From contig JAAOMT010000523.1 of NCBI GenBank assembly GCA_016748015.1, positions 1,004,423 to 1,068,422 of the forward strand: a stretch of DNA of 64,000 nucleotides. The letters are read 5' to 3'. The DNA is from Geosiphon pyriformis (taxonomy: Eukaryota > Glomeromycota > Glomeromycetes > Archaeosporales > Geosiphonaceae). Both the position numbers and the translations under genes were made by a program. Below the pieces are notes generated by a model. That model had not been told where the DNA came from and did no database searches. It saw only the letters and a list, made by a program, of their open reading frames with translations. Positions 9,421-62,723 of this stretch are shown here, in pieces. Position 1 is the first letter of the stretch; each line of letters starts with the position of its first letter.

Positions 9421-11200
9421 TGGTAAGTTGTGATGTAGTTGCTGTTGGTGTTAATTTTGTTTTATTCTTGAAAGACTATTAATATTGGTGTGTAGTTTTC
9501 TTGGTTTGTAATGTACAATATATTTGTAATCTGCTAAAAAATCATTTCATCAAGACTATTTGGCACTTTGTTCTATTTTCTTTTTATTAAGCCATTTGGG
9601 GCCAATATTGTTAGTTATGATGTCAAATTTTTTTCGATTTTTTAAGTATTGTTGAAAATGTTTAAGAGCCCAAATAACTGTGACAGCTTCTAATTCAGTT
9701 GAGCCATATTTGAGTTCTGTTGGTTTAAGTGTCCTATTAGTATAGACAATGACTTGCTCCTGACCATTTTCATCTAATTGTGATAGAATGGCACCAAATG
9801 CTATATGTAAAGTATTAGTGGCTAGTTGGAACCATTTGTTAAGCAAAAACTGAAGCTGTTGTCAATTTTGTTTTAAGAGTTTCAAAGACTTTCTGTTATT
9901 CCTTAGTTCATTAATATAATACGTTTTTGTTGGTAAGATAATTAAGTGGTTTGGCAATTTCTGAGAATTTTTTGATAAATTTTTGATAGTAGAAGACTAA
10001 TTCTACAAATTCTCATAGCTCTGTGGTGTTTTTGAGAGTTTAAAAGTTTTTAATAATACTGATTGTTCCAGAGTTTGGTTTAACTCCATTTTTGCTAACA
10101 ATATGTCCAAGAAAGATTAAACTTGTTTTTTTAAAATGACATCTTTTAATATTCAACTTCAGTCTTGTTTTCTGTAATCATTGAAAAACTTCTTACAGGT
10201 AAAAAAGATGGACTTCAAAGCTTGGTGAATATACATTAGTGTTATTAAGATAAACAATTACTGATTGCCATAAAAATCTTTCATATATAACATCCATGAG
10301 TTGTTGGAATATTGCTGGTGTATTGTAAAGTCTAAAAAACATAACATTGAACTTATAGTTTCCTCTTTGGATAGTAAATGCTGTTTTGGATCGATCTTTT
10401 GGGTCTATTTCGATTTGTTAATATCCATTTTTCAAGTCTAAAATTGAAAAGAACTTGGCTTTTTTTAGAGCATCTAGTATGTCATTAATTCTTGAAAAAG
10501 AATAGGCATCTCTAATTATTACACTGTTCAGTTGGCAATAGTCAACACAAAATCTGATTTTTTCATTTTTTTTTTAACTAAAACTATTGATAAGGTCTAA
10601 GGACTTCTTGATGATTGAATCAATTTATTATTAAGCATTTTCTGTACTTTTTCTCTAATGAATTGGTGGCTGGCAGGTTGCACTCAATAAGTTTGTTAAA
10701 GTTTTGGTGGAGCATTTTTTGTGTGGATTTGATGTTAAAAAATATCAGTTTTTTTCAGGTTATTGTTGTCTTTTGCAAATATATCAGCGAATTCAGCTAT
10801 TAACTGTTTCAATTGTTTTTGCTGTTGAGGTTCCAAGAAACTCATGTTGATTTAAGAGAGTTTTTCTTCCAAAAGATAGTAATTTTCAGTAGTAAAGATG
10901 TTGTTTGAATTGGAAAGTAGAGTATGTCTTACAATTTCAATAAAATTAGAGACAATTTGAGGGTTTTCATTTTGGAAAATATTGCTATATATGATTCCAA
11001 TTTCTAATTGATTTAATAAAATGATGGGGTAGTTGTTGAAATTGTAGAAAGTAACTCGAAATTTCTTTATTTTTTTTGATATATAGACATTTAGAATTAA
11101 GATTTTATGTTTTAAACAAATTTGTTCATTAGATTCAAAGATTTGTTGAGTGGTAGTAGCTTTTGAGCAAGTATAGATTTCGTGATGTTCTCCAAAAGGT
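9421..11200 (-). pseudogene. Reverse transcriptase and RNase H remnant of element B'
   Basis: It is homologous to 44019-45600 of element B. RNase H spans about 9450-9860 (a AFGAILSQLDENGQEQ segment at 9740-9800). The RT fingers and palm span about 9860-10660. The catalytic YLDD of element B is YLNN here (10225-10260), which abolishes metal binding. The region 10660-11200 matches the N-terminal RT extension of B (KELIAKFADIF-like near 10780-10830). Trp codons have repeatedly become TAA or TAG. The aligned changes are overwhelmingly transitions. Confidence 0.8.
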
Positions 11201-11760
11201 GATATGGTAATTGGTTAAAGAAGTTGAAGAATCTGGTAAGATTCATTTTGTGTATTAAGAGCTATGTTTACTAGAACTGTAAATTATCCAGTTAAACCAA
11301 AATCTTTGGTTTTTTTTTTACTTTTTCCTAATTGTTTTCTGTTTTTAACTGATTGTAAACCCAAAATGTTGATTAAAAGTAAGTAAATAGCTTAAGCAAT
11401 TTTTTCTGCATGCTCAATTTTGAATAGTTTGTTGATTTCATTTTGTAGCATAATTGTAATGTCTCCAATATATTTTGCATCTATAATTTCTCTTCTAACA
11501 TTGATTTTTTTGCTTGTCAATGATGATCAAGAAGCAATTTGTACCATTGCTCTTGGTGAAATTTCAAGAACAATTTTGAAATTGATTTTGGTGAGAGATT
11601 TTGGTTGAAGGATCAAGATATCTTTGTCAAGATATCATAAATCATATTCTGCATCAATTTTATAAGCTTTTTCAGGCTTGATTCTTTGACCATTATTGTC
11701 AAAATATTTAATTTTTAGAGCTGGTTAATTTCAGTAAGATAAATTGGAGTTGTTGTAATT
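11201..11760 (-). pseudogene. dUTPase remnant of element B'
   Basis: This is a decayed copy of the dUTPase found intact at 43330-43800. Motif 1 reads as an AEYDL-type sequence near 11630-11665. Motif 3 (IIDAKYIGD, about 11490-11515) keeps the Asp and Tyr. Motif 4 has lost its Gln to a stop (KIA*). Motif 5 is KDFGLTG (near 11290-11315) in place of GFGSTG. Its value is that it shows the domain was present in the family's ancestor, at the same place between protease and RT. Confidence 0.75.
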
Positions 11761-12470
11761 TTTTCTTCTGGCTTAGATTCTCTAAACTCAATTTCTTCTT
11801 GGTAATTTTTACTGGGCAAAGAGGTGTTAAGAGCATAACATTCTAAACACCATTTGTTATCACAAGACATGATGCATTTTTTACATAGTTGAATATTTAT
11901 TTGCTCTAATTGTTGAATTTGAGCTTCTTAGATTGAATAAGTGTGATTTGCAATTTGGTAGTAAGTTTCAACTTCATCTTTATAGTTAAATCTAGCTAAT
12001 TCTATAGTGTATTCAATGTATTCAGTTTTTTTTATTTGGTAAATATTTTCTTGTGTGGCTCCATTGATTAAAGCCATTGCTAGATTAAAGATTATTTCAG
12101 CATTATGAGGATAGTGGTAAAGTTTGTTAAAAGCACTGTTGTATGTTGTATCAAAGGGTGTTTTTCTTCTGATTTTTTCTGAAATTGATAGGACATATTG
12201 GCAGGTTTGATTACATACTCTTTCTCTCATTGTAATATCAATTCAGTTGTATTCTTCTGGTAGCATATCTCTACATGTAAGACAAAAAGTGTTGTTCTAT
12301 TTTCTGCTTCTTTTTGGGAATCCAAATCATTCTTTATAGCATGTTTTATAAAAATAGCAGGTGCAAGCTTCATATTTTTTTTTTGGAGATATACAAGCTT
12401 TCATAGATAAAAGCTTTTTTTTGCAATCTTTACATTTCAGTAGAATGTATGGTGGTTTTTTTTATGATTC
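11761..12470 (-). pseudogene. Cys-rich zinc module remnant of element B'
   Basis: It is homologous to 42600-43230 of element B. The best stretch (11928-12230) contains VCNQTCQYVLSISEKI, followed by an FNKLYHYPHNAEIIFNLAMA helix region. Other CxxC pairs at 12270-12440 are partly lost. It continues into the dUTPase remnant. On the upstream side it joins family A sequence rather than the expected protease of family B. Confidence 0.75.
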
Positions 12471-34748: not shown

Positions 34749-36692
34749 TTGTTTTTTCTGCTATATTGTTTCAACATTTCTTTACACGATAACCCTTTTG
34801 TTGTGGATTTGGAGGCTGCTGCTAGTGGTAGTATGGCTAGAAAAAAGGTACATAAGGGAGTCTTTCATGGTCCTGCTGATGATTCATTTGCTCAGAAAAA
34901 GAAAGTGGTTGTTGGCAATGTTAAGCACTCTGATGATGAAAAAGATGTTTCTTTGGACAAACCTGTCACTGGTGGTAATACGTTCTCTAATGTGGATGGT
35001 GAGTCTAGTGATAGTAAAAGCAGTGTCTTGATGGCTGGTGTTAGTGCTGGTTCTTTGCTTGGCTCAGCTGTCAATACTCCCAAAGCCAAAAATGTGATAT
35101 CTGGTGTTGTTGATGGCTCTTCTCTCGGCTCAATTAACTATGATATAGACGAAGATGTCGAGAACCTCCCTTCTCCTCTCAATCTCCCTCTCAGCAAAAG
35201 GTGGATTGATCCCAAAGTGGTGAAGACTCCTGTGGAAGTGGCGGTTAAGAAGTTTTATGCTTTAAATATTAATCTGTCAGCAGTAGAAAAGAAATCAACT
35301 ACGGCCAAAACTCAAGCAATCAGGAAGATTTTTTCAGTTGTCAATGGTTTTAGGGGGGCCATTACTCCCTCAAAATTTGAAGGGATCATCAGATCCACAT
35401 TTACATCTGAGGAGAGCATAAACAAAGCCGCGTTATTGGCTGAAGAGAAAGGAATCAAGGTAAATGGTGATCTTAAAAGACAAGAGATTAGGTCAGATTG
35501 GGCTGTGGTGATCAAAGAAATTTCCATGGACACACCAAAGGATATGATCGTCACTGCAGTGTTCAAATTTGGGGAAATTAAATCAATCAAGATTCAGCTG
35601 ATCGGAATGTGGCAGAAGGCTGTAGTGGAATTCACTGAATTGGGACAGGCAGAGCAATTGGCTTCAAAATGGTCCTTCTTAATTGGGAAGGATTCTGTGC
35701 ATGTGACGAAAGCCATGGGAGATCGTGATGTCTGGGCCTCTAGGAATCGTTTTAGGGCACTTCTGTTTACATTGCCAGTGGGAACAACTGCACATGATCT
35801 TAGTAATCTTTTGAATAGGACTGGTGGCAAAACTTGCATCATTAATTGTTCATTGGACACTGGCAATAGAGTTTATTGTGCTGTGGTTGGCTTCGAATCC
35901 AAAAATGATCTGAATTCTGCTTTTCTCACTGAGCCTGTTTTTGGTGGTGTTTGTCTCTCGTGGGCTAGATTGGATTTGGTTTGGTGTGGAAAGTATGGAC
36001 GTCTTGGTCATTCGGCTCTAGAGTGTGATGCACCAGATATGTCATCTCCTGATCTCTTGAGTTTTTCTAATAAAAAACATGCTCTTGGTGTTGATTGTCT
36101 CCAGTTGGCTAAGTTATATGCAAAGAAGAATGTTCCCATATCTCGCTCTGCTGCCTTTGGTGGCAAATCATGGGCTCAGGTAGTCTCTCTGGCTTCCCCT
36201 TCTGGTGGCTCTCTTTCTGATTCTGGTCTTGGTGTTGGCTTCTCTCCCCCTACGACTTCAGTTCTGAGTGGTGGTTTTCCCTCTTTTATGATTCTCGATT
36301 CTTCTTTGGATGTTCGATTGGCGTCTTTGGAATGCTCTCTTGAGTTGTTGGCTGACCAAGTGTCTAGTATTTTGAGGAAACTGAGTTGTGTTGAATTGGT
36401 GCACATGGTTTCATCTTTTGGTGCCCCTCTTTTGGTTGGCTCTGTGCCTTTGGCCTCTGTTTTGGACTCTGATATGGCTTTGGATGGCGAATTGGCATCA
36501 TTTGCTCTCCATTCTTCAAGTGCTGATTTGGGTGCTGGTTTTAATTCGAGTAGCTCGAAGGTTCTAACTAACAAGGTGGGTGGTTTGGAGTCTAAAATGT
36601 CAGCTCTGGAGGCTTTTGTCAGTTCTGTTTTGGCTAGGTTAGATCTTTTGTGTTCGGATTTGGGTTCATTGGCTCTCCCTTTTTCCCAATGA
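34749..36692 (+). CDS. LINE copy 1 ORF1, RNA-binding Gag-like protein
   Basis: An uninterrupted frame of 647 codons; the true start may be the ATG at 34833 (MARKKVHKG). It would bind the element's RNA and accompany it to the nucleus. Residues about 1-170 are polar and low in complexity. Residues about 245-305 (SDWAVVIKEI ... EFGEIKSIKIQL type) and 330-390 (RFRALLFTLPVGTTAHDL) look like two RRM-like folds. A zinc knuckle follows near residue 412, but it reads C-x2-Y-x4-H-x4-C; the second Cys is Tyr, a single G-to-A change, so zinc binding is doubtful. The C-terminus is Ser-rich with short Leu-rich coils (SKMSALEAFVSSVLARLDLL). The last codons overlap the ORF2 start as ATGA. Confidence 0.88.
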   Translation: MFFLLYCFNISLHDNPFVVDLEAAASGSMARKKVHKGVFHGPADDSFAQKKKVVVGNVKHSDDEKDVSLDKPVTGGNTFSNVDGESSDSKSSVLMAGVSAGSLLGSAVNTPKAKNVISGVVDGSSLGSINYDIDEDVENLPSPLNLPLSKRWIDPKVVKTPVEVAVKKFYALNINLSAVEKKSTTAKTQAIRKIFSVVNGFRGAITPSKFEGIIRSTFTSEESINKAALLAEEKGIKVNGDLKRQEIRSDWAVVIKEISMDTPKDMIVTAVFKFGEIKSIKIQLIGMWQKAVVEFTELGQAEQLASKWSFLIGKDSVHVTKAMGDRDVWASRNRFRALLFTLPVGTTAHDLSNLLNRTGGKTCIINCSLDTGNRVYCAVVGFESKNDLNSAFLTEPVFGGVCLSWARLDLVWCGKYGRLGHSALECDAPDMSSPDLLSFSNKKHALGVDCLQLAKLYAKKNVPISRSAAFGGKSWAQVVSLASPSGGSLSDSGLGVGFSPPTTSVLSGGFPSFMILDSSLDVRLASLECSLELLADQVSSILRKLSCVELVHMVSSFGAPLLVGSVPLASVLDSDMALDGELASFALHSSSADLGAGFNSSSSKVLTNKVGGLESKMSALEAFVSSVLARLDLLCSDLGSLALPFSQ

Positions 36693-38988
36693 GTCAGTTG
36701 GTGTGGAAGTTTGCTACTTGTAATGTTCGGGGCCTGAATAACTCTGCTAAGCAGGCAGATGTTATTCGCTGGCACTTTGATATGGGTAACTTGGTTTCGA
36801 TTTTCACAGAATCTAAGCTTAAGAACAAGGTTTGACCATGAATTGCTGGCAAGTTTGATGGTGTTCAGGTCTTTACTTCTGGTTTGGATTCTGGTTATCT
36901 TGGTTCTGGTGTAGCAATTGTCATAAACAATTCTTTGGCAAGGCATATTTTCAAAGTTTCTGAGGTGCCCAGCCAGCTCCTCTCCGTCAGACTTCTCTTC
37001 AAAAATAAACTTTCAGTTTCTATTTTGGGTCTTTACACTGGTGCCTCTTCAAGTGTCTGATTCTCACAGACTGGTGACATCAATTCTTTGATTGCTAAGG
37101 CAATAAATGAATCATCTTTTGTGGTCTTGGGTGGCAACTTTAATGAGGATAGCGTTCGTAAGAGTGCCAGTTTCAAAAAGTGCTTTGATCTGGGTCTGGT
37201 TAATGTCTTGGGTAGAAGTGTGCTTGCAAAGACGCTGACATGGGGTAACTCTCATGGTGTTGTCAAGACCATTGACTATATGTTCATCTCTTCAAGCTTG
37301 ATCAATGCTGTGGTGGATTGTGGTATGACTGGAGTCAAGAACTTTTTTGATACTGATCATAAAGCTGTTTCTGTTTCTGTGGATTTGGGTGGCTTGCTTG
37401 ACTTTCAGCTGAATTTGATGTGCAAGCAGGCTAATAAAAATTGTTGGAAGTTCGATTTTGGAAATGCTGGTGAGAAAGAGTAGAACAATTTTAAGGATGC
37501 TACATTGGCCAATGGCCTAATGTTCTCGAATGATTTCGCTGTTTCTGCGGAATCTTCAGATTTGGATGCTATGTGGGACATTGTACGCAAAGTAATGGTT
37601 CTCTCAGCAGTTGGAACATTCAAAAAGAAATGGTTTAAGGGTTATGATGAGGTTTTTACCAAAAGTTCTTCTAGGTTTCACAAGCTTGAGTTGCTGGTAT
37701 CCAAGCTGGTTAAGGCGTCTCATTTGTTGTCTAGTGTGGAATTTGTGTCGTTGTTGAATATGTGGGAGAAGCTCGATGCCAATGGTGCTTCGGTGGTAAA
37801 GTCTTTATTTCTTTTAAGTTCCAGTTTTGACAGGATTTGCTCGGCTCTGGCTAAGGCAAGGAAGTCTTTACCACTTTGCTAAGTTGCTAGAATCCAAATG
37901 TGCTAAGAAATCCCATATCAGGGTGGCTATTAATAAAAAGATGGAAAGTTTTGAATCAGACAAGGGTCACACTATTAGGAGTGTTTTGGAGCATCCCTTT
38001 CACAGAGTAGTACTGGATCATCTGGTTGTAGGTAATAAGTTGATTTTGGAGCCTAGCCTAATTAAGGCTAGGGTGAATGGGATCATGGAAGGCTGGACCA
38101 GGAAGTACAAGGTGGTGTCAGATATCTCTGATATTTGGTCTCGCCAGTACAGACCTTTGGAGCATGTTTTCAATAGTGCATTTTCTGGTGTAATGAGTCC
38201 TATTAGTTTCAATGAGTTGTTCAGTGTGGTTTTTGGTCTGCCTGAGGACAAGGCTGCTGGTCTCTCTGGGATTTTAAACGAGCTCTTGAAACACTATAAC
38301 AGATCAATTTTGAACATGTTTTTGGTGCTTTTAAATTCTTGTTTGATTCGTGAATTAATACCTAGTGCTTGAAAGGAAGCCTGGGTTTCAATGATCTTTA
38401 AGCTGTATGAGTGGGAAGGAGTTCTTACAAACACCCAACCTATTGCCTTGATTGAGACTGCCTGCAAGATTCTTTCTAAGATTCTTTCAGATAGGATCTC
38501 ATTGGCTTGTAGTACTTTTGATGTTCTGCATGGGGACAATTTTTCGGTTTTAAAGGGTACGACAACACAGTCTCCCATTTTTGCCATTGGCTCAGTTATT
38601 GAGAATGCTTTGGAGAAGAATCGTGAACTTTGGTTGGTCTTGTAAGACATGCGGAAGGCTTATGATTCTGTTGGGTGGGAACACCTTCAGGACAATTTGG
38701 TTAGGATAAAGATGTGTAGTAGGTTCATTAGATTCTTTGGCAGCATCCACAGTGGTCGCGTTAACAGAGTTATGACGGATTTTGGTTTGACGGACAGGTA
38801 CGAGATGCATGATGGCTTGGACCAAGGGGAGGTGTTCTCACTGCTCTTTTGGCGCATATTTTATAATCCCCTTTTGTGTGAAATTAAGAGACAGATGGAT
38901 GGGTGTGATTATAGATTGAATTTTTATTTTATTTCTGGATGTGGTCATGCTGAGTCTCGGACTGGTGTAACCTCATTTTTTGCAGTGG
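36689..38988 (+). pseudogene. LINE copy 1 ORF2, 5' part: endonuclease and RT start
   Basis: ATG 36689 overlaps the ORF1 stop. The APE-type endonuclease spans about 36700-37420: ATCNVRGLNN, TESKL (catalytic Glu), GGNFNED in place of the usual GGDFN, IDYMFIS, and FDTDHKAV with the final Asp-His. The Asp-to-Asn change at the third motif probably kills it. RT begins near 38200 and includes TQPIALIETACKILSKILSD, DMRKAYDSVGWEH and LDQGEVFS. It stops at 38988, just before the catalytic FVDD box. Stops occur at Arg, Trp and Gln codons (36834, 36840, 37060, 37481, 38370, 38643), and there is one extra T near 37867 that shifts the frame. Confidence 0.85.
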
Positions 38989-39974
38989 TGTTACCAGACA
39001 AAATTAGAAATATCATTTAGCATGAAATTATCTCATAATTCCTATCATTAATTAGCATATATTATCATTTCAAATTATCACTTATTACATTAGCAAAGAA
39101 TGTCCGAAATTATCATTTAATTAATAACCCAAATTGTACACAACACAAATGTAACCTAATTGCGATGATCAATCATGCAATACCCCGAACTATGTAATAT
39201 TCAAAAGTTTGCTGAAATTTATAGAAATTTGCCGAAATAATTGATAGTTCACTGAAATATCTAATAGTTCGCAGAAATGACTTATAGTTCACCAAAATAT
39301 ATCTTTAGTTCAGCAAAATTGTAGAAAATAGCAAAGTTCAAGTTCATAGAATAGTGTTATGACAAGTTGTATAAAAGATGAGCTTCTCTCTTCGAGAAAA
39401 TGTATCTTACTTTAGATTTATTACTTAGAACCATTCTTACATACACAAAAAGAAATAAAAATCAAATAATTTGAAAAAACCAAATTTTTTAATTATTACA
39501 CTTGGAAAATCCTCAAAACCCAACTAACGTTTTGAAATTGATTAGCTACCAATTTCAGTAAACTGTTAGTAACTCTAGGCCTGGATAGAAAATGTTTCTC
39601 TTGACAAAATTCTATTTCTTTTTACATTTCTTTTATTTTCTTTTATTTTCTTTTATTATTATAATCATTAGGGTAGCCTACAAACAAAATTCTTGTAGAA
39701 GAGTTGACTTTCACAGCAAAGTAACTACACATTTTTAGTGAGCTTCCAAATGAGCAATTTCTGGGAAAGAGTTGACGTTTACTACAATGTAACTACATAA
39801 AGTAACTGGCAAGGAATTGGCCATTCCACTTATAAGCCCAGCAGTTCAAATTATAGGAGATAATTTGAAGATAAATTCAGTTATTGGAGGTTCAACCATG
39901 TCCAAAAAATGTGAATTCACAGCAAATAAGTATCAACAACATTACAGAAAAGAGACCAAAAACCTCTGGTAACA
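38989..39974 (+). repeat. 5' LTR of element B (986 bp)
   Basis: It begins TGTTACCAGA and ends TCTGGTAACA, a perfect 10-bp inverted repeat. Against the 3' LTR I count by eye about 42 differences, about 40 of them transitions, and no indel. The U3 region holds a block of degenerate repeats of about 20 bp (GTTCRCNGAAAT type, about 39205-39325). A TATAAAAG box lies at 39370-39377, followed by a small inverted repeat TTCTCTCTTCGAGAA. Confidence 0.95.
39370..39377 (+). promoter_or_regulatory. TATA box of the family B LTR
   Basis: TATAAAAG is conserved at the same place in the 3' LTR (47934-47941) and in the LTR of element C (57777-57784), just upstream of the hairpin TTCTCTCTTCGAGAA. It is likely to set the transcription start at the U3/R border. 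Confidence 0.6.
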
Positions 39975-40016: not shown

Positions 40017-41501
40017 GTGGTGACTGCCTCAGACATCACAACCTTAGAGTACTATCAATTGATTTACACACATTGCAAACAACAATTTGAAATACATGAT
40101 GGAATCATAGCTTTCAAGAAAACACTTTTTCAATACATCGAAAATTGAATCAATGACTACCTCTTTGGGAACTATAACATTACAACAGTTAAAAGAGATC
40201 TTCTTGAGAACATACTACACTATTCCAACACTGAATCAGAAAACATTAGTGCTGAAGCTTGCACTACTTATTTTGAGGAACTTGATTATAATATCATTCA
40301 ATTCTGTGAAGAAAAATATCCTGCAAATGCACAATTTGCCTTTGAACTCGAATCTGAACCTGAAACCAGTAACAACAAAAGACATAAAGATAACCAACCT
40401 GTTCACACAACACCCAATACTTCCAAAATATCATTCAAACATCTACAAACACCTGAACAAAGAACCAGCTCAAAACTTTCACTTATTATCACACCTTTTC
40501 CAGCTTCACTTGCATAAGCACAAACACCTAATTCACCCTTGAATTGATTTGCAAGACCAGAAGATTTTACATTACTCAGAAGTCCCACCAGACAACAAGA
40601 ACCTCTTCAAACTAGTTCCAATCTCCTTGATTTTCTAGCTGAAAATCAAAGTGAACACTCTGAGACAGCAGCAAACGAAGAAAACAACTCTGAAATAACT
40701 GAAGAAAAATCAATAGACAGTGAAAACAAAGAAGACGAAATGACAACATACATCGCAAAAATCCCTGACTTTAATGGAGAAGACATTGAGACCAGTTCTT
40801 AAGAATGGCTCGACCAATTTACTAAAGCTGGAGATGCAAATGGATGGAATGCCACCAGAATGTTAAGAACAATTCCATACTTTCTCAAAGGAACAGCAGA
40901 AGAATGGTTTGAAAACCTGGCCACCCCATTCAATGATTGGAATGCTTTCAAAGCAGCCTTCCTTGAACAGTTCACCAACAATAATACCTCTATCACTCTT
41001 CACAATCGTTTTCGAAATATCAAACAAGAACTCTCCGAATCCATTATGACTTATATTGAGAAATTCAACAAACTTCTCAGACGGATTCGCCAACTCGAGA
41101 CAAACAATTATTATTCTAATGCTCAAATTTTGGATCAATTTATTGCTGGTCTAAAAGATAAACCAATTAAAAAAATTCGCCCACATGCGCCAGAAGATTT
41201 AAACTTTGCCATATAGCATGCGAAAAGATACAAAATGGCCATGGAAGAAGCCAATCGTACAAAACTTGTAAATTTGGCAATTGGAGAAACCAGCTCAGTA
41301 GCTGAGGAAAAAATTGACCAACTCACAAAGAAAGTCGAAAACTATTTTACCAACCAACAACAACAACAATCCCAAAGATATCAACCACCCCAAAGACGAA
41401 ATCAAAATAACTTTGCACCACTTTCCAATAACCAGCCCCAAAATTGCCATTACTGTGGAATCTTTGGCCACTGGAAAAGAGATTGCAGAAAGCTGCAATG
41501 A
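40017..41501 (+). pseudogene. Gag of element B
   Basis: One frame without indels, in the same frame as protease and dUTPase. The start codon is unclear: no ATG lies between the primer-binding site and the first homologous residues, and the frame opens at GTG GTG (element C has GTG GCG), so a non-AUG start or an upstream ATG lost to mutation is possible. The N-terminal region TTLEYYQLIYTHCKQQF is shared with C. The capsid (retrotransposon gag family) spans about 40790-41120, with AEEWFENLATPFNDWNAFKA and IMTYIEKFNKLLRRIRQLE. Then a Gln-rich stretch and a CCHC knuckle CHYCGIFGHWKRDC (41448-41490) follow. Stops at Gln, Arg and Trp positions (for example 40165, 40516, 40543, 40800, 41214, 41499) break it. 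Confidence 0.85.
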
Positions 41502-42395
41502 GACCAACAAAATAGGGGTAATCAACATTACTCTCCATCACAGCAATTTTATTATCAACTATCACCACCAGCTTACTATCCACAAAAACCCCAATACCAA
41601 AATAACTATTATCAGCCCACCCCACAACCAATCCAACAGCAATACCAACAACCACCCACACAACATTATCAAGTACCTGCTCGAAGACTGATTACACAAA
41701 ATCAATTCATACCACAAAACCAATACCAAGTAAACAACAGTAGAATCAGTTCGAACAACCAATTGGTTCCCCAAAATACCACTCAACCAAGACCCAACCA
41801 TTACCACACTCAACCCAATTATTTAACAATGCCAGAAGAATAGGATTTTCACCATACTGCATTCTCAGAAGGTAGAGCTGCAACACAACAACAACGAAAC
41901 TCTTCTCATAACCACACCACTATTCCACCAGCCTGAATTGCTGAAAACGCCAATCCCTCTGATATCTTTCCTTTTGAATTTGAAGCAAATGAATCACCAT
42001 TCTTGCTTAGCAATGTAGTGGCTAATGAGCAAAAAGCTATTACTGCAATGTACACAGAAGCTGAAGTAGAAGGAAAGCCAATTCGCTTGATCCTAAACAG
42101 TGGATCCGCTGGAAGCATTATTACCTACCAGTTAATGCAACAGTTGAAAAAAAATGTCGACCAACCAGCTCAAACAGTAATCATCACTGCCGATGACATA
42201 AAAAAGACCCCGGTAGGAGAAATTGACAATTTTCCGTTCACTCTTGATGGAATCACCATTCCAGTCAAAGTTCTTGTAATGGATGCATCCCAGTACCAAG
42301 CTCTCGTCAGAAATGATTGGCTTCAAAAAGCCAATACTAATCTGAATTGGGAAACACAAGAATTAACAATCTCCTACCAAGGACAACATGCCTGA
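41502..42395 (+). pseudogene. Protease region of element B
   Basis: After a Tyr/Gln/Pro-rich linker the retropepsin core appears at 42003-42395: AITAMYTEAEVEGKPIRLIL, then NSGSAGSIITYQLMQQL. The active-site Asp is Asn here but Asp in element C (LILDSGSA), so this copy lost it by one G-to-A change. A VLVMDASQYQALVRNDWLQ block follows and ends at a TGA (42393). It is in the same frame as gag, so no frameshift signal is needed in this family, unlike family A. Confidence 0.8.
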
Positions 42396-44018
42396 GTACC
42401 TGCCATTTGTGATACATTCAACAAATGCTCTGAAAAAGCCCCGGCTTTTAAATTTGAACTAGAAGAAAAAAAACCAATAATCAAAACATTCATGGCTTTT
42501 GGATCAACGTCCAACTTGGCTGATAAAATAGAACAAGAACATTTTATCCCACACACTAAACCCGAAACCTTTGGATGGAATATACCTTACTCAAAACCCA
42601 AACCAAGGAAACAATGCCCCTATATTCCCCTTAAATGTAAGGACTGCCACAAGAAACTATTGTCAATAGGAGCCTGCATTTCACCTGAAGAAGAATATGA
42701 AAATCATACTTGTTATTACTGCAAGGCTTGTCACAGAGAGCGATGGGGCCATCTAATAAAAAGGAGTGGAAAATGGGACAACATCTCTTGTTTGACTTGT
42801 GGAGATATGCTACCAGAAGAATGCAATTGGATTGATGTAGCAATGAGAGGAGGCGTCTGTGATCAGACCTGCCAATATGCTTTATCAATTTCAGAAAAAG
42901 TAAAAAGAGGAACACCCTTTAATGCAGCATATAATAGTGCTCTCAACAAACTTTATCACTACTCTTATGATGCTGAGATGATTTTCGACTTAGCAATGGC
43001 ATTAATTAATAGAGCTACCAAAAAAGATGTTCGTCAAATGAAGGAAGCAGAATATATTGAATACACTATGGAATTAGCTGGATTTGATTACGAAAATGAA
43101 GTAGAAGTCTACCACCAAATTGCGAGTCACACTTACCCGACCCAAGAAGCTCAAATTCAACAATTAGAGCAAATGAACATTAGGCTATGTGAAAAATGCA
43201 TTATGCCTTGCGATGAACAATGGTGTTCTAAATGCTATGCTCTTAGTATCCCCTTGCCCAGCGAAAATGATGAGAATGAAATTGAATTCGGAGAACCTGA
43301 AGAAATGGAAGAAATTGAAACAACACCCATCTACCTTATCAAAAATCAGTCTGCTTTACAACTTAAATACTTCAACAACAATGGACAAAGAATAAAACCC
43401 AAAAAAGCACACGAAATTGATGCTGGATATGACCTAAGATATCCAGGCAAGGATACTCTTGTTTTCAAACCCAAATCTCTCACAAAAATCAACCTCAAAA
43501 TTGCACTCGGAATCCCGCCAGGAGCAATAGTTCAAATCGCCTCCCGGTCCTCTCTGGCAAGCAAAGGAATCAATGTCAGAGGAGGAATAATCGATGCTGG
43601 ATATACTGGAGACATAACAGTGATGCTTCAAAATGAAACTGACAAACCATTCAAGATCGAACATGCTGAAAAAATTGCCCAAGCTATTTACCTACTCTTA
43701 ATCAATATTTTGGGTTTGCAACTAGTCAATCAAAGAGAACAATTAGGAAAAAGCGATAGAGGAACCCAAGGTTTTGGTTCAACTGGACGATTCACAGTTC
43801 CAGTTAATATAGCTCTTAACACACAGAATGAATCCCACCAGATTCTCAGACTTCCACAACCAATTACTATCTCACCCTTTGGAGAACATCCGGAAATCTA
43901 CACCTGCCTAAAGTCAACAACTACACAACAAATTTTTGAGTCCAATGAACAAGTCTGCTTGAAACATAATATTTTGATTCCAAACATTTATATTCCAGAA
44001 GGAACAAAGAAAGTCTGA
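42396..44018 (+). CDS. Cys-rich zinc module fused to dUTPase (element B)
   Basis: The frame is open without a stop for 508 codons from 42492, the longest open stretch of the element. First part (42595-43230): at least five CxxC pairs (KCKDCHKK, TCYYCKACH, SCLTCGD, VCDQTC, LCEKC...WCSKC), probably zinc ribbons. Second part (43330-43800): a trimeric dUTPase, which would hydrolyse dUTP and keep uracil out of the cDNA. Motif 1 is DAGYDLR, motif 2 SRSSLASKGI, motif 3 GGIIDAGYTGDITV with the catalytic Asp and base-stacking Tyr, motif 4 KIAQ, motif 5 RGTQGFGSTG. All key residues are present. A tail (43800-44018) leads towards RT. dUTPase is known from betaretroviruses and non-primate lentiviruses, but there at other places in the genome. 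Confidence 0.88.
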   Translation, partial: VPAICDTFNKCSEKAPAFKFELEEKKPIIKTFMAFGSTSNLADKIEQEHFIPHTKPETFGWNIPYSKPKPRKQCPYIPLKCKDCHKKLLSIGACISPEEEYENHTCYYCKACHRERWGHLIKRSGKWDNISCLTCGDMLPEECNWIDVAMRGGVCDQTCQYALSISEKVKRGTPFNAAYNSALNKLYHYSYDAEMIFDLAMALINRATKKDVRQMKEAEYIEYTMELAGFDYENEVEVYHQIASHTYPTQEAQIQQLEQMNIRLCEKCIMPCDEQWCSKCYALSIPLPSENDENEIEFGEPEEMEEIETTPIYLIKNQSALQLKYFNNNGQRIKPKKAHEIDAGYDLRYPGKDTLVFKPKSLTKINLKIALGIPPGAIVQIASRSSLASKGINVRGGIIDAGYTGDITVMLQNETDKPFKIEHAEKIAQAIYLLLINILGLQLVNQREQLGKSDRGTQGFGSTGRFTVPVNIALNTQNESHQILRLPQPITISPFGEHPEIYTCLKSTTTQQIFESNEQVCLKHNILIPNIYIPEGTKKV

Positions 44019-45612
44019 GTTACTTTTTACAATCCCAATAATTACCCCATAATTTTATTAAATAATTTAGAAATTGGAGTTATTCACAGTAATATATTTT
44101 AACAAGAATTACCCCAAATAGTTCCCGATTTCTCTGAAATTATTGGACATTCAATACCAAAAACCAACCCAAACCCCAGCTCCGAAAACTACCATGTTGT
44201 CATGAAAAAACTATCTCGAATCAACATAGGACAACTTGAACCACAACAACAGACCCAGCTCAAAGAGCTAATTGCAAAATTTGCTGACATCTTCACCGAA
44301 AACAACAATGACTTAGGAAGAACTGATTTGGTTCAACACCAAATCTATACAGGAGATGCCAAACCAAGGTGACAACAAGCCTACCGAGTTGTCCCAGAAA
44401 GTCACCAATTTATCCAAGAAGAAGTACAACAGATGCTTAACAATGGGCTTATTCAACTATTAATGAGCCCATGGGCCTCACCTGTGGTCCTAGTTAAAAA
44501 AAAAATGGAAAGATACGATTTTGTGTTGATTACCGACAACTCAATAGTGTCACCATTGGGGATGCTTACCCTCTTCCCCGAATTGATGACATGTTGGATG
44601 CCCTTGGAAAGTCCAAATACTTTTCACCATTAGATTTAGAGAGTGGATACTGGCAAGTTGCTATGGATCCCAAAGACTGCCCCAAAACAGCATTCACCAC
44701 TCAAGGAGGAAATTACGAGTTCAATGTAATGCCTTTTGGATTATGCAATGCACCAGCAACATTCCAAAGACTCATGGATGTTGTTTACAAAGGCCTCCTT
44801 TGGAAATCAGTAGTAGTTTATCTCGATGACACTGATGTTTATTCATCATCTTTCGAGCTACATTTAATTCACCTGCGAGAAGTTTTTCAACGATTACAGA
44901 AAGCAGGATTGAAACTGAACATTGAAAAATACTACTTCGGAAAAACAAGTTTAGCTTTTCTTGGTCACATTGTTAGCAAAAATGGAATTAAACCAGACTC
45001 CGGAAAAATCAGTACTGTCAAAAACTTCAAGACTCCACGAAATACCACAAAATTAAGAGGATTTATTGAATTAGCATCCTATTACCGAAAATTCATCAAA
45101 GGATTCTCAGAAATTGCAAAACCCCTCAACCAGCTCATTACTAAAAATGTCGAATACAAATGGACAGAAGAACACCAAAATGCCTTCGAGATACTTAAGG
45201 AAAAACTCACAACAGCTCCAATCCTCACCTACCCAGATTTCAGCAACCAATTCTGGTTAGCAACTGATGCCTCTTATACTGCTTTTGGTGCCATTCTATC
45301 ACAGTTAGATGACAATGGAAATGAGCGAGTAATTGCTTATGCTAGTAGAATATTAAAGCCAGCCGAAAAAAACTACCCTACAACAGAATTAGAAACCGCA
45401 GCAGTAATCTGGGCTCTACATCACTTCAACCTTTACCTCAGACCCAAAGAATTTGATATTATCACTGATAATATTGGACTTAAATGGCTTCAAAACAAAA
45501 ACACCCAGCTGAACGCAAAACAAACCCAATAGACAAAATTTTTAGCTAATTACCAATACATTGTACACCACAAACCAGGAAAACTCCACACCAACATTGA
45601 TTGTCTCTCAAG
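44019..45612 (+). pseudogene. Reverse transcriptase and RNase H of element B
   Basis: The N-terminal RT part continues the gag-pro-dUTPase frame (QLKELIAKFADIFTENNNDL, MSPWASPVVLVKKK). A run of ten A at 44496-44505 then shifts the frame; one A too many explains it. The rest (44500-45530) holds RFCVDYRQLNSV, YFSPLDLESGYWQVAMD, MPFGLCNAPATFQRLMD and the catalytic VVYLDDTDVYS, both Asp intact. RNase H follows: WLATDASYTAFGAILSQ, TTELETAAVIWAL, and FDIITDNIGLKWL. A TAG replaces Trp at 45530, and the tether ends near GKLHTNIDCLSRMRQN. Confidence 0.88.
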
Positions 45613-47061
45613 AATGAGACAAAATTAGAAAACAAAACCAACACCCATTTGAATTAACAGCATCAAAACAACAAACAATGAACCCCGAAAACTACAACAA
45701 TCTCAAACAATATTTGGAGACATTAACAATCCCAACAGATTGGTCTCCAGACAAAAAACATCAGTTACAACAACAAGCCAAACAATATTTTCTACACAAC
45801 AACATTATCTATCATCAAAATTTCAAAAACCCAACCAAACCACTCAAATTAATACAAGAACAAGAAAAAGAGATTATTTTATACAATATGCACTCAGATC
45901 CTTCATCAGCACACTTCGGAAAAGATAGTACCACCCAAAGAACACTAGAATACTACTTTTGGCCTTGAATGAGAAAAGACATTCACAAATATGTCGAATC
46001 TTGTGATAATTGTCAAAGAAGAGGAGAAATTTGCCCTACAGAACCTTTAAATTCAATCAAAGTTGGACAGCCTTTTGACAGAGTTGGTATCGATTTAGTC
46101 AGACCACTATCTATTACCACTCAAGGAAACCGTTATATTGCAGTAGCTGTAGATTATCTTACTAAATGGTCTGAAGCCAGAGCCATTCAACAAGCAGATG
46201 CAAAATCAGGAGCAAATTTCATCTACGAAGACATCATTTGTAGACATGGATGTCCAATTGAACTTTTATCTGATTAGGGAACACACTTTGTGAACAACCT
46301 GATACAAGAAATTTGTGAACAATTTAATATCAAAAGACCTCTGTCTTCGCCCTACCATCCACAAACAAATGGACTTGTGGAACGTTTTAACAGAACATTG
46401 TGTGAGTTATTAGCCAAAGTCTCAACCGATTTTGAACAAGAATGGGATTTCTTTATTCCATCAGTGTTACTAGCATATAAGACATTAAAACAAGATACCA
46501 TGAAACACACACCATTTGATTTAACTTATGGAAGGATGGCAACATTACCAATCAGTTTCACAGTGGAAACATATCCAGCACAACTAATCGATGAAAACAA
46601 TTTCCAAGAAACACTTCAGTGAAGAGCCTATACTCTGCTTAGCACATTGGAAGGAAAATGACAAATAGCAGCCAACCATATTGAACACTCCCAAGCTCAA
46701 CAAAAAGAATGGCATGATAACAAATTGTCTTCAGTCACCAATAAATTCAAAATTGGAAACAAAGTTCTCTTACACAGAACTAAAGCTGAAAAACAATGGA
46801 GTGGAAAATTTGAAAATAAATGGGATAGACCATTCTTTATCCATGAAGTCTTAGACAATAGATCATACAAGCTAAGACTTGATGACAAAATTCTAGCAAA
46901 AGTTGCACATGGAGATTGTTTAAAACACTATCATTCCAGAAACAATCCTGAACCATTAATTCCACAAATTGGTACACATTCTTCTTTGGTCAGTCCCGAA
47001 GATATTCCCTGAAACTTAGAACCAATAGTTGTTATTGAACAACCTTCCAACCTGAACACTT
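45613..47061 (+). pseudogene. Integrase of element B
   Basis: Frame changes near 45615, then the domain is complete: HHCC finger (MHSDPSSAHFG ... YVESCDNCQRRG), core with Asp in VGIDLVRPL (46085), Asp in LLSD followed by a TAG in place of Gln (46274), and Glu in LVERFNRTL (46375). A long LAYKTLKQDTMKHTPFDLTY segment and a C-terminal SH3-like part (WSGKFENKWD, FIHEVLDNRSYKLRL) follow, then a Pro-rich tail to the stop near 47060. No chromodomain is seen. Stops at Trp, Gln and Arg positions (45966, 46276, 46621, 46660) inactivate it. Confidence 0.87.
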
Positions 47062-47279
47062 AATTTAATTTTACTAGTTATTCTCTTATAATTTAGAAAC
47101 AATCTCACAAAAACAAAACAAAAATAACATAAAAACCCATACACCAAAAATAATTTTTTATTTTTTTTCAATTGCTTATAATGACTATTCCTTAAAACAT
47201 TCAACAATTATCCCAAAAACTAATGTTAGCTTTAAAAACAATACCCGAATTATCCATTACTGTTACTGGAAACCACATA

Positions 47280-47456
47280 NNNNNNNNNNNNNNNNNNNNN
47301 NNNNNNNNNNNNNNNNNNNNNNNNNNNNNNNNNNNNNNNNNNNNNNNNNNNNNNNNNNNNNNNNNNNNNNNNNNNNNNNNNNNNNNNNNNNNNNNNNNNN
47401 NNNNNNNNNNNNNNNNNNNNNNNNNNNNNNNNNNNNNNNNNNNNNNNNNNNNNNNN
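47280..47456. other. Assembly gap (177 N)
   Basis: The run of N falls inside ORF3 of element B. Comparison with B' suggests that more than twice this length is missing. Confidence 0.95.
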
Positions 47457-47542: not shown

Positions 47543-48528
47543 TGTTACCAGATGAAATTAGAGATATCATTTAGCATGAAATTATCTCATAATTCCTATT
47601 ATTAATTAGCATATATTATCGTTTCAAATTATCACTTATTACATTAGCAAAGAATGTCCGAAATTATTATTTAATTAATAACCCAAATTGTACACAACAC
47701 AAATGTAACCTAATTGCGATGATCAATCATGCAATACTCTGAACTATGTAATATTTAAAAGTTTGCCGAAATTTATAGAAATTCACCGAAATAATTGATA
47801 GTTTACCGAAATATTTAATAGTTCGCAGAAATGACTTGTAGTTTGCCGAAATGTATCTTTAGTTCAGCAAAATTGTAGAAAATAGCAAAGTTCAAGTTCA
47901 TAGAATAGTGTTATGACAAGTTGTATAAAAGAAGAGCTTCTCTCTTCGAGAAAATGTATCTTACTTTAGATTTATCACTTAGAACCATTCTTACATACAC
48001 AAAAAGAAATAAAAATCAAATAATTTGAAAAAACCAAATTTTTTAATTATTACACTTGGAAAATCCTCAAAACCCAATTAACGTTTTGAAATTGATTAGC
48101 TACCAATTTCAGTAAACTGTTAGTAACTCCAGGCCTGGATAGAAAATGTTTTTCTTGACAAAATTCTATTTTTTTTTACATTTCTTTTATTTTCTTTTTT
48201 TTTCTTTTATTATTATAATCATTAGAGTAGCCTACAAACAAGATTCCTGTAGAAGAGTTGACTTTCACAGCAAAGTAACTACACATTTTTAGTGAGCTTC
48301 CAGATGAGCAATTCCTGAGAAAGAGTTGACGTTTACTACAACGTAACTACATAAAGTAACTGGCAAGGAATTGGCCATTCCACTTATAAGCCCAGCAGTT
48401 CAAATTATAAGAGATAATTTGAAGATAAATTCAGTTACTGGAGATTCAACCACATCCAGAAAACGTGAATTCACAGCAAATAAGTATCAACAACATTACA
48501 AAAAAGAGACCAAAAACCTCTGGTAACA
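47543..48528 (+). repeat. 3' LTR of element B (986 bp)
   Basis: Exactly as long as the 5' LTR, with the same 10-bp inverted ends. It is followed by GCGGATGCC, where the LINE resumes. Confidence 0.95.
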
Positions 48529-50889
48529 GCGGATGCCTTTGTTGATGATACTATTTGGGTTGGCAGCAGTCAAAGTGCTACACAACACATTCTTAACATT
48601 GCTAGTGAATTTTTCAGTATCAATGACATCTCAATTAATAATGATAAGTCTGTTGCCATTCCCATTAATTGTGATAGTACGGCTTCCTCTTTGCTGATCA
48701 GTGGGTCACCTATTTCTATCGCCAAGAAGGAGAAATCGCATCACTATTTGGGGATCTATTTGTCAACTGAGGGTCTTTCGAAGCCTAGCTTGGCTAAGGT
48801 GCATTCTGATGTCTGGTTTTTTTCTAATTTAGTCCTGAGAAAGACAGTGGTCCTCTTTCCTATTATTGAATATAGAACACAGTTCAGTTACGTTCCTATT
48901 AATGCTTGTGGAAAGTGGGACACTTTGATTCATAAGGGCTTGAAATTTAAGTCTGGTTTGCCACGTGATTTTCACAATAATGCGATTCATTATCTCTCTC
49001 TGTATAGTTTGAAGACTTTTGAACAGGTTCAAGCTAAGAGCAAGATGGCTTTGGTCATTTCCTTCGCGAACTCTGTTGGGATTTTGGAGCATCTATTTTC
49101 TCACTGGTCACATGATCTTCAGGTCCTCTGCTGGCGCCCGCTACATCTTTTGCAGTGTCCAGTTCGTGTCAAAGTCAATTCTCTAAACAATTTTCTGGTG
49201 GGTGTGGTGCATATTTTCTCTGGGTGTGATTTGTCATTGGGTGGCTTTCTGACTAGTGCTTTTCGTCGTCGGGGTGAAACTCCTATGTCTTTTGTTCTTG
49301 GTGAATCAAATTATGTCAAGAGTGTCTTGTCACTTCGACATTATGAGATTGCTTTTGTAGACCAGCTATGAAACCGAAATGGGGCTGTTTTTGAGTGGAA
49401 GACCTTCAAACAATGGAAGTGGTTAGACTCACATAGTCCGGTTCCTGTCTGGTTTGAGCTGTTGGTTCATTTTCTTGGTGGCATGTTTTCTCTTCCTGTC
49501 TACTCCACGCTTTTGGCTGATTGTGGCTCTTCGGATGTTCTTCAGTCTCATGAGTTTGGCATTATTGGCGCCGGTTTATTCAATTCTAATGTTGGTCATC
49601 TTTCTGTTTACACAAATGGATCTCTAAGTAATTTAGGGACTGTTGATATGAAAGCTGGGGCTGCTGTTTTCTTTGAGAACATTGGTATGGGTTTGGGTGT
49701 GGGGGTATCTGGTTTAATGTTTTTTATCTTGACGGAACTGCAGACTATTGCTTTGGCACTTGAGTGCGTCCTTTTTTCTCGCTCAGTCGACTTGTTCTCA
49801 GACAGTCAGGCTGCTTTGAATGCTTGCAAGTTGGAAATGGAATTGGTTTGCCCAGATTTTAGGAATTGGTGTTGGATTGAATGCCACCATATTGTTAATG
49901 TCATTCATCGTAAGAATTTAAAAGTTAATTGGTGTAAGGTAAAAGGACACTCAGGGATTTTAGGCAATGAACAAGCTGATAAATTGGCCAGGGCTGCAGC
50001 TCTCTCTGGTTGGCATCTGCCTCATTCTGTTGATAAACACTATCTTAGAGGTGGGGGAGCAGCCATTTCTGGTAATTTTAGACATTTTGTTCGGGATATT
50101 TTTCGGTCAGTTTATCGTGCACATTGGAAAATCAGTTGTGGTATAAGGGTGATGGCAGATAGTCTGCACACAGATATTGATTGGTTTAGGTCGTCACTGG
50201 TTTGGCATCCGGATTCTCACATGGCTGCTGGCTTCATTAGTAAGTGGACTGCTGGCTTCCAGACTTACTTTATGAAGGCATTGCACCATTGGCTTCCTGT
50301 TGCTGTGCATAAGCGGCTTTATGATAAGCAATATCCCAGTGTGACGTGTTTGTTTTGCAGTGATGTCGAGGTCTCAGACCATGTGTTTTCTTGTTCATTT
50401 GATGCCAATGATCGTGCTCAGTTGTTGGACACTTATGCAGCAGTTTGGGGTGTGCGCTCCAGTTTGGCTCATTCTTTCTCAGGTGTCTCGCAGCTAATAT
50501 CTACTTGTGTATTTGACATTTTAGTTAGTACTGCTCTATGCAAAGGTTTTGTTTTCAAGGATTGGTTTCGTGAGTCTGTTTCTGTCTTTAAGGATTCCAG
50601 GATAGTGGATCAGACCATTGTGGCCTTTGTGTGTGAGTTTAGCTTGGCTTTTTGGAAAGACATTTGGTTGGTTTGTGCCAAGTACTGTGCTTTTATGGAA
50701 AAAAATAGGCTTATTCCGTGCAATGGGTCAGTTTCTGTCTCAATTTCTGGGCTTTCTTTAGGGCTGTCATCTGATGTGACTCGGCTGCTGGGTGTTGCTG
50801 AGACGATTGGTGTTGGTTTTGGATTCCATAAGTCTTGTTTGTTTTTTTCAGGCATAGGGAATAAGGTTTCTGTTCATATAGGTGCTTAG
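48529..50889 (+). pseudogene. LINE copy 1 ORF2, 3' part: RT catalytic box, RNase H, zinc tail
   Basis: It resumes at the RT catalytic motif AFVDDTIW, both Asp intact. Near 48850 about 15 codons found in copy 2 are missing in frame. A TGA at 49369 replaces Arg or similar. From 49462 to 50889 the frame is open for 475 codons: RNase H (LSVYTNGSLSNLG, where the first catalytic Asp is Asn; LTELQTIALALECV; DLFSDSQAALNACK; VKGHSGILGNEQADKLA), then a C-terminal Cys motif CLFCSDVEVSDHVFSC (C-x2-C-x7-H-x3-C) and the end SGIGNKVSVHIGA. The 129-base 3' UTR follows. Confidence 0.87.
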
Positions 50890-51018
50890 TGTTGTTCTGA
50901 TTGGTCCGAGTGGCTGGTCACGTGTAGATAATGCATGATTCACACCTAGTTTAGATCATTTATATGATGTATTGCACTAGGCAGTATTTGGACTTCGCTC
51001 ATTAAATGTTAATAAAAA

Positions 51019-51428: not shown

Positions 51429-51439
51429 CTTCTTTTCTT

Positions 51440-61459: not shown

Positions 61460-62723
61460 CTGACCAGCTCAGACAATCATTGTCACTGCTGATGGCATGA
61501 AAAAGACTCCAGTAGGAGAGATTGACAACTTCTTATTCACAATTGACGGAATCACCATTCCAGTTAAAGTTCTGGTCATGGATGCTCTCCAATATCAAGC
61601 TTTTGTTGAAAACAATTGGCTCCAAAAAGCCAATGCTAATCTAAATTAGAAAACACAAGAGTTAACAATCTCCTACTAAGGACAACATGCCCAAGTACCT
61701 GCCACTTGTGGTACATTCAACAAACACTCTGAAAAAGCTCTGGCTTTTGAATTCGAACCAGAAGAAAAGAAACCCATCATTGAAACATTTATGGCACTTG
61801 GATCAACCTCCAATTGGGCTGATGAAACTGAACAACAGTATTTTTCAACATATGATTCTCTTGAAACAAAAGAACCAGTAACATTCGGATGGAATGTCCC
61901 CTATTTAAAACCAGAACCACAAAAACAATGCCCTTACCTTCCACTTAAATGCAAAGATTGTCACAAAAAACTTTTATCAATGGGAGCCTGTATTTCACCT
62001 GAAGAAGAATATGAAAATCATACTTGTTATTACTGCAAGGCTTGCCACAGAAAATGATGGGGCCACCTAATAAAAAGAAGTGGAAAATGTGACAACACCC
62101 CTTGTTTGACTTGTGGAGATATGCTACCAGAAGAATACAATTGGATTGATATAACAATGAAAGGAGGAGTCTGCGATCAAACCTGCCAATATGCTTTATC
62201 AATTTCAGAAAAAGTCAAAAGAGGAACACTTTTTGATGCTGCTTACAATAGCATCCTCAACAAACTGTACTACTACCTTCACGATGCCGAAATGATTTTC
62301 AATTTAGCAATGGCTTTAATCAATAGAGCCACTCAAGAAAATGTTCATCAAATAAAAGAATCAAAATACATTGCATACACCTTTGAAATCACTGAATACA
62401 ACTACAAAGATGAAGTAGAAGTATATCACCAAATTGCCAGTCACATCTACCTAACCAAAGAAGTTCAAGCTCAACGGCTAGAGCAAATGAACATTAAATT
62501 ATGTGAAGAGTGTATAATACCATGTGACGAACAATGGTGTCCTGAATGCTATGCCCTTAGCATTCCATTACCCAACAAAAGTAATGAATATGAAATCAAT
62601 TTTGGTGAATCTGAAGCAACAGAATAAATTGAAACAACACTCATCTATCTCATTAAAAATCAGCCTGCTTTACAACTCAAATACTTCAACGACAACAGAC
62701 AAGAAATAAAATCTGAAAAAGCA
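61460..62723 (+). pseudogene. Protease end and Cys-rich module of element C
   Basis: The remainder of the protease (61460-61690) is followed by the Cys-rich module (61791-62627), collinear with element B: KCKDCHKKLLSMGACISPEE, TCYYCKACH, MTCGDMLPEE, VCDQTCQYALSISEKVK, LCEECIIPCDEQWCPECYA. All CxxC pairs are retained, so these cysteines are the conserved core of the module. Stops at Trp or Gln positions (61648, 61677, 62056, 62625) break it. dUTPase is missing because of the truncation at 62723. Confidence 0.82.

What the first reader, a model, noticed from the sequence alone, without database searches (positions are those of the whole stretch)
42396..44018. Gypsy retrotransposon carrying a zinc-ribbon module plus a complete dUTPase between protease and RT
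Seen: one open frame of 508 codons joins at least five CxxC pairs to a dUTPase with all five motifs, including the catalytic Asp and the Tyr of motif 3. The same order is found in the decayed B' copy (11201-12470) and, as far as it goes, in C. Known: dUTPases occur in betaretroviruses (beside protease) and non-primate lentiviruses (between RNase H and integrase), and have been reported in some LTR retrotransposons. Inference: this fungal family recruited its own dUTPase at a different site, perhaps to limit uracil in cDNA. That is notable in a genome whose transposons decay by C-to-T change. The Cys module fused in front has no function I can name.
Basis: partly seen in the sequence, partly recalled or inferred. 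Interest (0 to 1): 0.82.

Follow-up and report, generated by a model that had tools for sequence, protein, structure and literature searches.

The report
Fungal jumping gene with built-in dUTPase
A very common, now decaying jumping gene of the soil fungus Geosiphon pyriformis carries its own dUTP-destroying enzyme joined to a cysteine-rich, probably zinc-binding module; jumping genes with a dUTPase in this place were known before, but the module matched nothing in the family and structure libraries searched.

Summary
Window 42396-44018 encodes a cysteine module followed by a five-motif dUTPase, between protease and RT of an LTR-bounded Ty3/gypsy element of Geosiphon pyriformis. The 508-codon frame is not a gene of its own: a related protein reads on through its bounding stops.

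It is no one-off. The 30 top-scoring loci fetched all carry module and dUTPase in the same order, in two families (50-57% identical in the dUTPase). An unbroken protein from an unnamed ENA contig has the same order. Element dUTPases group together (94/97), 21-33% identical to Geosiphon's own five-exon dUTPase gene: best read as one old acquisition, not a recent capture from that gene. In family II, transversions show strong purifying selection on the dUTPase; the first Cys part compares with protease.

The site between protease and RT was published earlier for fungal and rotifer elements. The link to C-to-T decay is not supported: decay is strand-symmetric. The cysteine module (13 conserved Cys in three clusters) has no significant match in Pfam or PDB. 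I propose that it tethers dUTPase to the reverse-transcription complex; structure models were too poor to test that.

The parts
38989..39974 (+). 5' LTR (986 bp), TGTTACCAGA...TCTGGTAACA
   Evidence: 42 differences from the 3' LTR, 40 of them transitions
41440..41500 (+). gag CCHC zinc knuckle (nucleocapsid), distinct from the Cys module
   Evidence: read by eye from the sequence; the same stretch of copy C scores PF00098 19.8 bits, just under its cut-off of 20.8
42003..42395 (+). retroviral-type aspartic protease, same frame as the Cys-dUTPase frame
   Evidence: PF13650 6e-8, PF08284 1e-6
42636..42731 (+). Cys cluster A: C81, C84, C109, C112 of P0001 (plus less conserved C94, C106)
42789..42872 (+). 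Cys cluster B: C132, C135, C155, C159 (plus less conserved C143)
42873..43187 (+). middle part of the module, predicted mostly helical
   Evidence: block means of pLDDT 81-94 for model residues 101-140 only, lower elsewhere
43188..43235 (+). Cys cluster C: C265, C268, C272, C277, C280
43398..43787 (+). dUTPase domain; motifs 1-5 at 43419-43436, 43539-43559, 43581-43610, 43668-43682, 43758-43787
   Evidence: PF00692 3e-22; motif positions; solved dUTPases down to 4e-16
43806..44018 (+). tail between dUTPase and RT, cut short in this copy by a stop
44591..45532 (+). reverse transcriptase - RNase H
   Evidence: PF17919 7e-36, PF00078 2.5e-28
45666..47072 (+). integrase region, with stops in this copy
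   Evidence: pairs with copy B; integrase domains in the open frame of related copy L032
47543..48528 (+). 3' LTR
11062..12461 (-). copy B: the same Cys-dUTPase-tail order, several stops
61695..62723 (+). copy C: linker, Cys module and first 30 residues of dUTPase, then cut off

Best explanation
This is the PR-RT spacer of an old, highly amplified Ty3/gypsy lineage. The Pol precursor carries PR, then a cysteine-rich, probably zinc-binding module, then dUTPase, then RT-RH-IN. Shown: domain order, motif conservation, purifying selection in family II, element dUTPases grouping apart from the host gene. Inferred: the released or still-fused Cys-dUTPase removes dUTP near the reverse-transcribing complex while the element copies itself in hyphae with little host dUTPase, and the Cys module holds the enzyme on nucleic acid, much as betaretroviral NC is fused to dUTPase.
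For: dUTPase with all five motifs. 30 of 30 fetched top loci have Cys part, middle part and dUTPase in order. Unbroken PR-Cys-dUTPase-RT protein P0286. In family II (15-16 copies) columns with a transversion at codon positions 1/2/3: dUTPase 9/3/38 (p 7e-10), first Cys part 6/7/27 (p 3e-5), PR 9/4/30, start of RT 12/7/21. The 13 Cys of clusters A, B and C are all present in P0286. Element dUTPases on one side of a 94/97 branch. Review PMC4531489 (passages): retroviral dUTPase matters in non-dividing cells and is fused to NC in betaretroviruses.
Against: No activity, zinc or nucleic-acid binding is shown. Only 15 of 30 rows (29 distinct places) keep all nine key residues checked, and the loci were picked by dUTPase score. 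The stretch of residues 186-285, which holds cluster C, shows no significant constraint (8/7/16, p 0.095). Family I has almost no transversions; the few in its first Cys part do not favour position 3. No slid-frame control of the selection count was run, and copies are related. AlphaFold models were poor (mean pLDDT 57.7 and 45.5). The host has its own dUTPase gene, so the need for a second one, and low host dUTPase in hyphae, are assumptions.
Confidence: 0.68

Rival explanations
1. The domain is a dUTPase fold kept for structure or binding (for example trimer assembly of Pol, or a scaffold), not for catalysis.
For: Bovine immunodeficiency virus has a dUTPase-related gene critical for replication without activity (PMC4261571, title and start of abstract in a search listing).
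Against: Catalytic-motif residues are shared by two families 50-57% identical and by P0286. At the nine key residues checked, the departures seen (D to N, R to Q or K, S to L, one stop) are amino-acid changes that a C-to-T or G-to-A change gives (judged from residues, not codons).
Confidence: 0.12
2. The Cys module does not bind nucleic acid but docks a protein partner (RT, integrase or a host factor such as uracil-repair or chromatin proteins), for targeting or assembly.
For: The element already has a CCHC knuckle in gag, so a second nucleic-acid binder is not obviously needed; the middle part is predicted helical.
Against: No fold match found; no partner tested.
Confidence: 0.3
3. The dUTPase is a recent hitch-hiker captured from the host gene in one copy.
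For: None found.
Against: The host gene is 21-33% identical to the nine element rows, has five exons and groups with four other cellular enzymes (97/98), away from the elements (94/97); two families and P0286 share the dUTPase.
Confidence: 0.02

Closest known systems
PosPlaTy3-5 of Postia placenta and other fungal dUTPase-bearing Ty3/gypsy elements (PMC2864245; P. chrysosporium and Tuber melanosporum elements cited there)
   Same: Ty3/gypsy element of a fungus with dUTPase between PR and RT
   Different: No Cys module mentioned in the passages seen; that paper suggests independent acquisitions.
Bdelloid rotifer Juno, Vesta and TelKA elements (PMC5408684, passages)
   Same: dUTPase between PR and RT; in Juno an extra Zn knuckle follows the dUTPase
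   Different: Here the Cys part precedes the dUTPase, spans about 200 residues and has 13 conserved Cys in three clusters, not a CCHC knuckle
Betaretroviral NC-dUTPase (PMC4531489, passages; MMTV p30 and M-PMV)
   Same: zinc-binding protein part (NC; its zinc knuckles are recalled) fused N-terminally to dUTPase
   Different: There NC is joined by frameshift and dUTPase lies before PR; here the module is separate from gag NC and lies after PR
Lentiviral dUTPases (PDB 1duc, 1f7d; lentiviral origin recalled)
   Same: 33-36% identical to the window dUTPase; motif 3 reads GG.IDEGY against GGIIDAGY here
   Different: Lie between RNase H and integrase (recalled; also in the finding); no Cys module known to me

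Membership tests
Ty3/gypsy LTR retrotransposon | paired LTRs with inverted ends | tested here: met
   986-bp LTRs, 42 differences, TGTTACC...GGTAACA ends
Ty3/gypsy LTR retrotransposon | order gag-PR-RT-RNaseH-integrase | tested here: met
   integrase core and zinc domain in the open frame of related copy L032
Ty3/gypsy LTR retrotransposon | short target-site duplication | tested here: inconclusive
   flanks GTGG and GCGG, 3 of 4 bases alike, within what looks like a LINE reading frame (read by eye)
trimeric dUTPase (PF00692) | profile match and five motifs | tested here: met
   (79.2 bits, cut-off 22), motifs
trimeric dUTPase (PF00692) | dUTP hydrolysis, trimer | not testable with these tools
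   no wet work; model mef2e7981f6d1 too poor
fungal PR-dUTPase-RT elements (PosPlaTy3-5 kind) | dUTPase between PR and RT | tested here: met
fungal PR-dUTPase-RT elements (PosPlaTy3-5 kind) | common descent of the dUTPase | not tested
   their sequences are not in the collections reached
fungal PR-dUTPase-RT elements (PosPlaTy3-5 kind) | chromodomain (the paper's supplementary dUTPase tree is titled as of chromodomain-containing elements; whether PosPlaTy3-5 has one was not seen) | tested here: inconclusive
   no chromodomain hit at E up to 0.1 in the one open integrase frame scanned, L032
betaretroviral NC-dUTPase | NC knuckles fused to dUTPase, before PR | tested here: not met
   module lies after PR, is not CCHC, and gag has its own knuckle
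zinc ribbon / zinc finger family | conserved CxxC pairs of the kind that hold zinc | tested here: met
   three clusters conserved in families I and II and in P0286
zinc ribbon / zinc finger family | zinc actually bound | not testable with these tools
   no wet work
zinc ribbon / zinc finger family | match to a described family or fold | tested here: not met
   best E 0.066 in Pfam, 0.1 and 0.46 in PDB sequences, 0.32 in Foldseek PDB with a poor model

The most novel reading that the evidence does not exclude
The Cys module is a previously undescribed zinc domain that, fused to dUTPase, keeps the enzyme on the reverse-transcribing cDNA: an independent retrotransposon answer to the betaretroviral NC-dUTPase. 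It is ancient and spread beyond Geosiphon, and helped this lineage amplify to very high copy number in a fungus with long non-dividing hyphae.
Probability: 0.3. Interest if true: 0.6.

Novelty: new variant of a known kind. Interest (0 to 1): 0.42.

Why it matters
It would show that pairing a zinc module with dUTPase arose separately in fungal retrotransposons and betaretroviruses, and that uracil control mattered for a retrotransposon that reached a very high copy number in a fungal genome. It also points to a conserved protein domain that no Pfam model picked up here.

Tried and rejected
Recent capture from the host gene: rejected. No host dUTPase at all: the 150 scored hits were all at 32-42% identity, none host-like, but a shorter query found the intron-split host gene. 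Source in viral contigs: two scans gave no relative. Fold of the Cys module: models too poor, Foldseek best E 0.32, none of 97 matches at E 0.001 or better. Pfam zinc and other families on the module: weak hits at E 0.066 to 4.9, taken as chance. Link of dUTPase with C-to-T decay: rejected as the cause. Whether P0286 is foreign to Geosiphon, by whole-genome search: not answered four times; it rests on its ENA source without a Geosiphon name and its 51-64% dUTPase identity to the eight Geosiphon element rows in the tree. The organism of P0286 is unknown. The long open frames were first taken for intact polyproteins; L031 showed that its 1847 comes largely from a run of N; the others were not checked.

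Rows dropped: one search kept 65 rows (the window, 30 locus rows, 34 of 119 protein hits) whose aligned stretch spanned nearly all of the 440-residue query; L004, L026 and window copies B and C fell out as split or short. L016 and L031 are the same place and both counted. One search left out copy B. The three protein searches list only the best 120 of 515, 276 and 193 hits, nearly all Geosiphon, so absence elsewhere is not shown.

Full report
What is there. The frame 42396-44018 is open for 540 codons. It starts directly after the stop that ends the protease frame 42003-42395 and is in the same frame. Residues 335-464 match the dUTPase profile at E 3e-22 and solved dUTPases at E down to 4e-16. 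Motifs 1-5 are all present, with Asp400 and Tyr403 in motif 3. In front lie 16 cysteines (residues 81-280) in three clusters around a middle part predicted helical. Downstream is a tail, then RT-RNase H (44591-45532), then integrase sequence. LTRs of 986 bp lie at 38989-39974 and 47543-48528, with 42 differences, 40 of them transitions. By eye the element sits in an older LINE reading frame. The predicted protein P0242 reads through the stops that bound the frame, so the ORF is a stretch of a decayed Pol, not a gene.

Where it is. Annotated proteins at up to 90% identity are named Geosiphon pyriformis. The window lies in a 124.7-Mb assembly of 406 contigs. The dUTPase profile gave 3181 first-look candidates in that assembly; 150 were scored and all 150 passed the cut-off, the weakest at 76 bits, so the true number is at least 150 and very likely well above it. 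Of the 30 best loci, 30 have Cys part, middle part and dUTPase in the same order; these were picked by dUTPase score, so they are the better-kept copies. They fall into family II (window type) and family I (dUTPase 50-57% identical to family II, first Cys part 42-50%).

Beyond Geosiphon. Its 1064 residues hold PR, Cys module, dUTPase and the start of RT in one frame, 42% identical to the window over 505 columns and 78% over 90 residues of RT. Its organism is unknown, so spread beyond Geosiphon is likely but not proven.

The Cys module. Across eight rows from both families and P0286 the invariant Cys are 81, 84, 112 (cluster A), 132, 135, 155, 159 (B) and 265, 268, 272, 277 (C); 109 is lost in one row and 280 is not covered in two. 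P0286 has all 13 cluster Cys, 109 and 280 included, but not 94, 106 and 143. In the wider alignment (18 family I rows from 17 places, 47 family II rows) other letters at these places are mostly Tyr, which a single G-to-A change gives, though up to 17 of 47 family II rows have gaps at cluster A-C positions, the predicted proteins being cut up. Pfam, PDB sequences by single sequence and by profile and Foldseek gave nothing significant. Two AlphaFold jobs had mean pLDDT 57.7 and 45.5, so no fold is claimed.

Origin of the dUTPase. Geosiphon has its own dUTPase gene, found in L038 with five exons. It is 70% identical to PDB 4oop (a plant enzyme, recalled) and 61% to 3so2, but 30-33% to element dUTPases and 21% to decayed copy B. 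In a 16-row tree the nine element rows are one side of a branch (94/97, just short of the program's star) and the five cellular rows another (97/98, starred). A single side of a branch does not prove a single origin. With 151 columns the place of the two lentiviral rows is unsure. Basidiomycete and rotifer element dUTPases could not be included.

Selection. In family II, columns with a transversion at codon positions 1/2/3 are dUTPase 9/3/38, first Cys part 6/7/27, PR 9/4/30, start of RT 12/7/21, tail 3/4/13, middle part with cluster C 8/7/16. Equal numbers would be expected without constraint. The bias is strongest in the dUTPase; the first Cys part is about like PR; the middle part is not significant (p 0.095). 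The pairwise ratios agree: dUTPase 0.11, Cys 0.20, PR 0.20, tail 0.21, RT 0.36, middle 0.45. Family I has too few transversions to judge, and the few in its Cys part do not favour position 3. No slid-frame control was run and the copies are related, so the p-values are rough. Of 30 rows (29 places) 15 keep all nine key residues checked.

Decay. In 17 family I copies 188 of 198 private changes are C>T or G>A, in every neighbour context, more often at CpG (16 of 19 and 16 of 24 sites). In 15 family II copies it is 139 of 225; this older family also shows T>C, A>G and transversions, some of which may be wrongly polarised. Rates on the two strands are alike (family I p 0.93, family II p 0.42). The review PMC4531489 (passages) reports excess G-to-A in retroviral DNA made without dUTPase; such a plus-strand bias is not seen here. 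The decay is best read as cytosine deamination in integrated DNA and says nothing for or against dUTPase function.

Mechanism. Shown: order, conservation, selection in family II, grouping apart from the host gene. Inferred: the enzyme lowers dUTP where the element's cDNA is made, useful where host dUTPase is low; the Cys module places it on nucleic acid or on the complex. The nearest functional parallel is NC-dUTPase of betaretroviruses, by analogy and not by descent.

Novelty. dUTPase between PR and RT is in print for PosPlaTy3-5 (PMC2864245, passages) and rotifer elements (PMC5408684, passages); Entomophthora muscae shows enrichment of dUTPase among TE-related domains (PMC11105155, passage). 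No paper in the held library joins Geosiphon with dUTPase or Rhizophagus with dUTPase and retrotransposon. Wider searches listed 10 of 12, 15 of 702, 15 of 186 and 8 of 29 papers; no title or abstract start shown there describes this module. The library lacks most subscription journals; the Geosiphon genome paper (cited) was not read. The Cys module fused to dUTPase and the copy number are the new parts.

Noticed in passing
L001-L030, 17 family I copies: 188 of 198 private changes are C>T or G>A in all contexts, with CpG raised and both strands alike: RIP-like in purity without a RIP context. PMC8647823 (passage) says RIP signatures were not detected in Gigaspora margarita or Mucoromycotina.
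   Followed up: partly
12811-18150, minus strand (and a copy near 456-3240): A second Ty3/gypsy family (RT 50% identical) in which no dUTPase was found; after its protease it has a short Cys run that may be a lesser zinc knuckle (by eye).
   Followed up: partly
34749-39020, 48531-57240: LINE-type reading frames (recognised by eye, no profile run) flank and underlie the element; the element appears inserted in one of them with flanks GTGG and GCGG.
   Followed up: partly
43806-44080 and P0286 about 812-840: The tail between dUTPase and RT has a stretch resembling the surroundings of dUTPase motif 4 (37% over 30 residues, E 0.24); possibly a second, degenerate dUTPase-like unit, possibly chance.
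   Followed up: no
L038 1163-1919: Geosiphon's own dUTPase gene, five exons; the same frame runs on upstream into a Ser/Pro-rich stretch.
   Followed up: yes
47280-47456: A run of N inside the element, near the 3' LTR.
   Followed up: no
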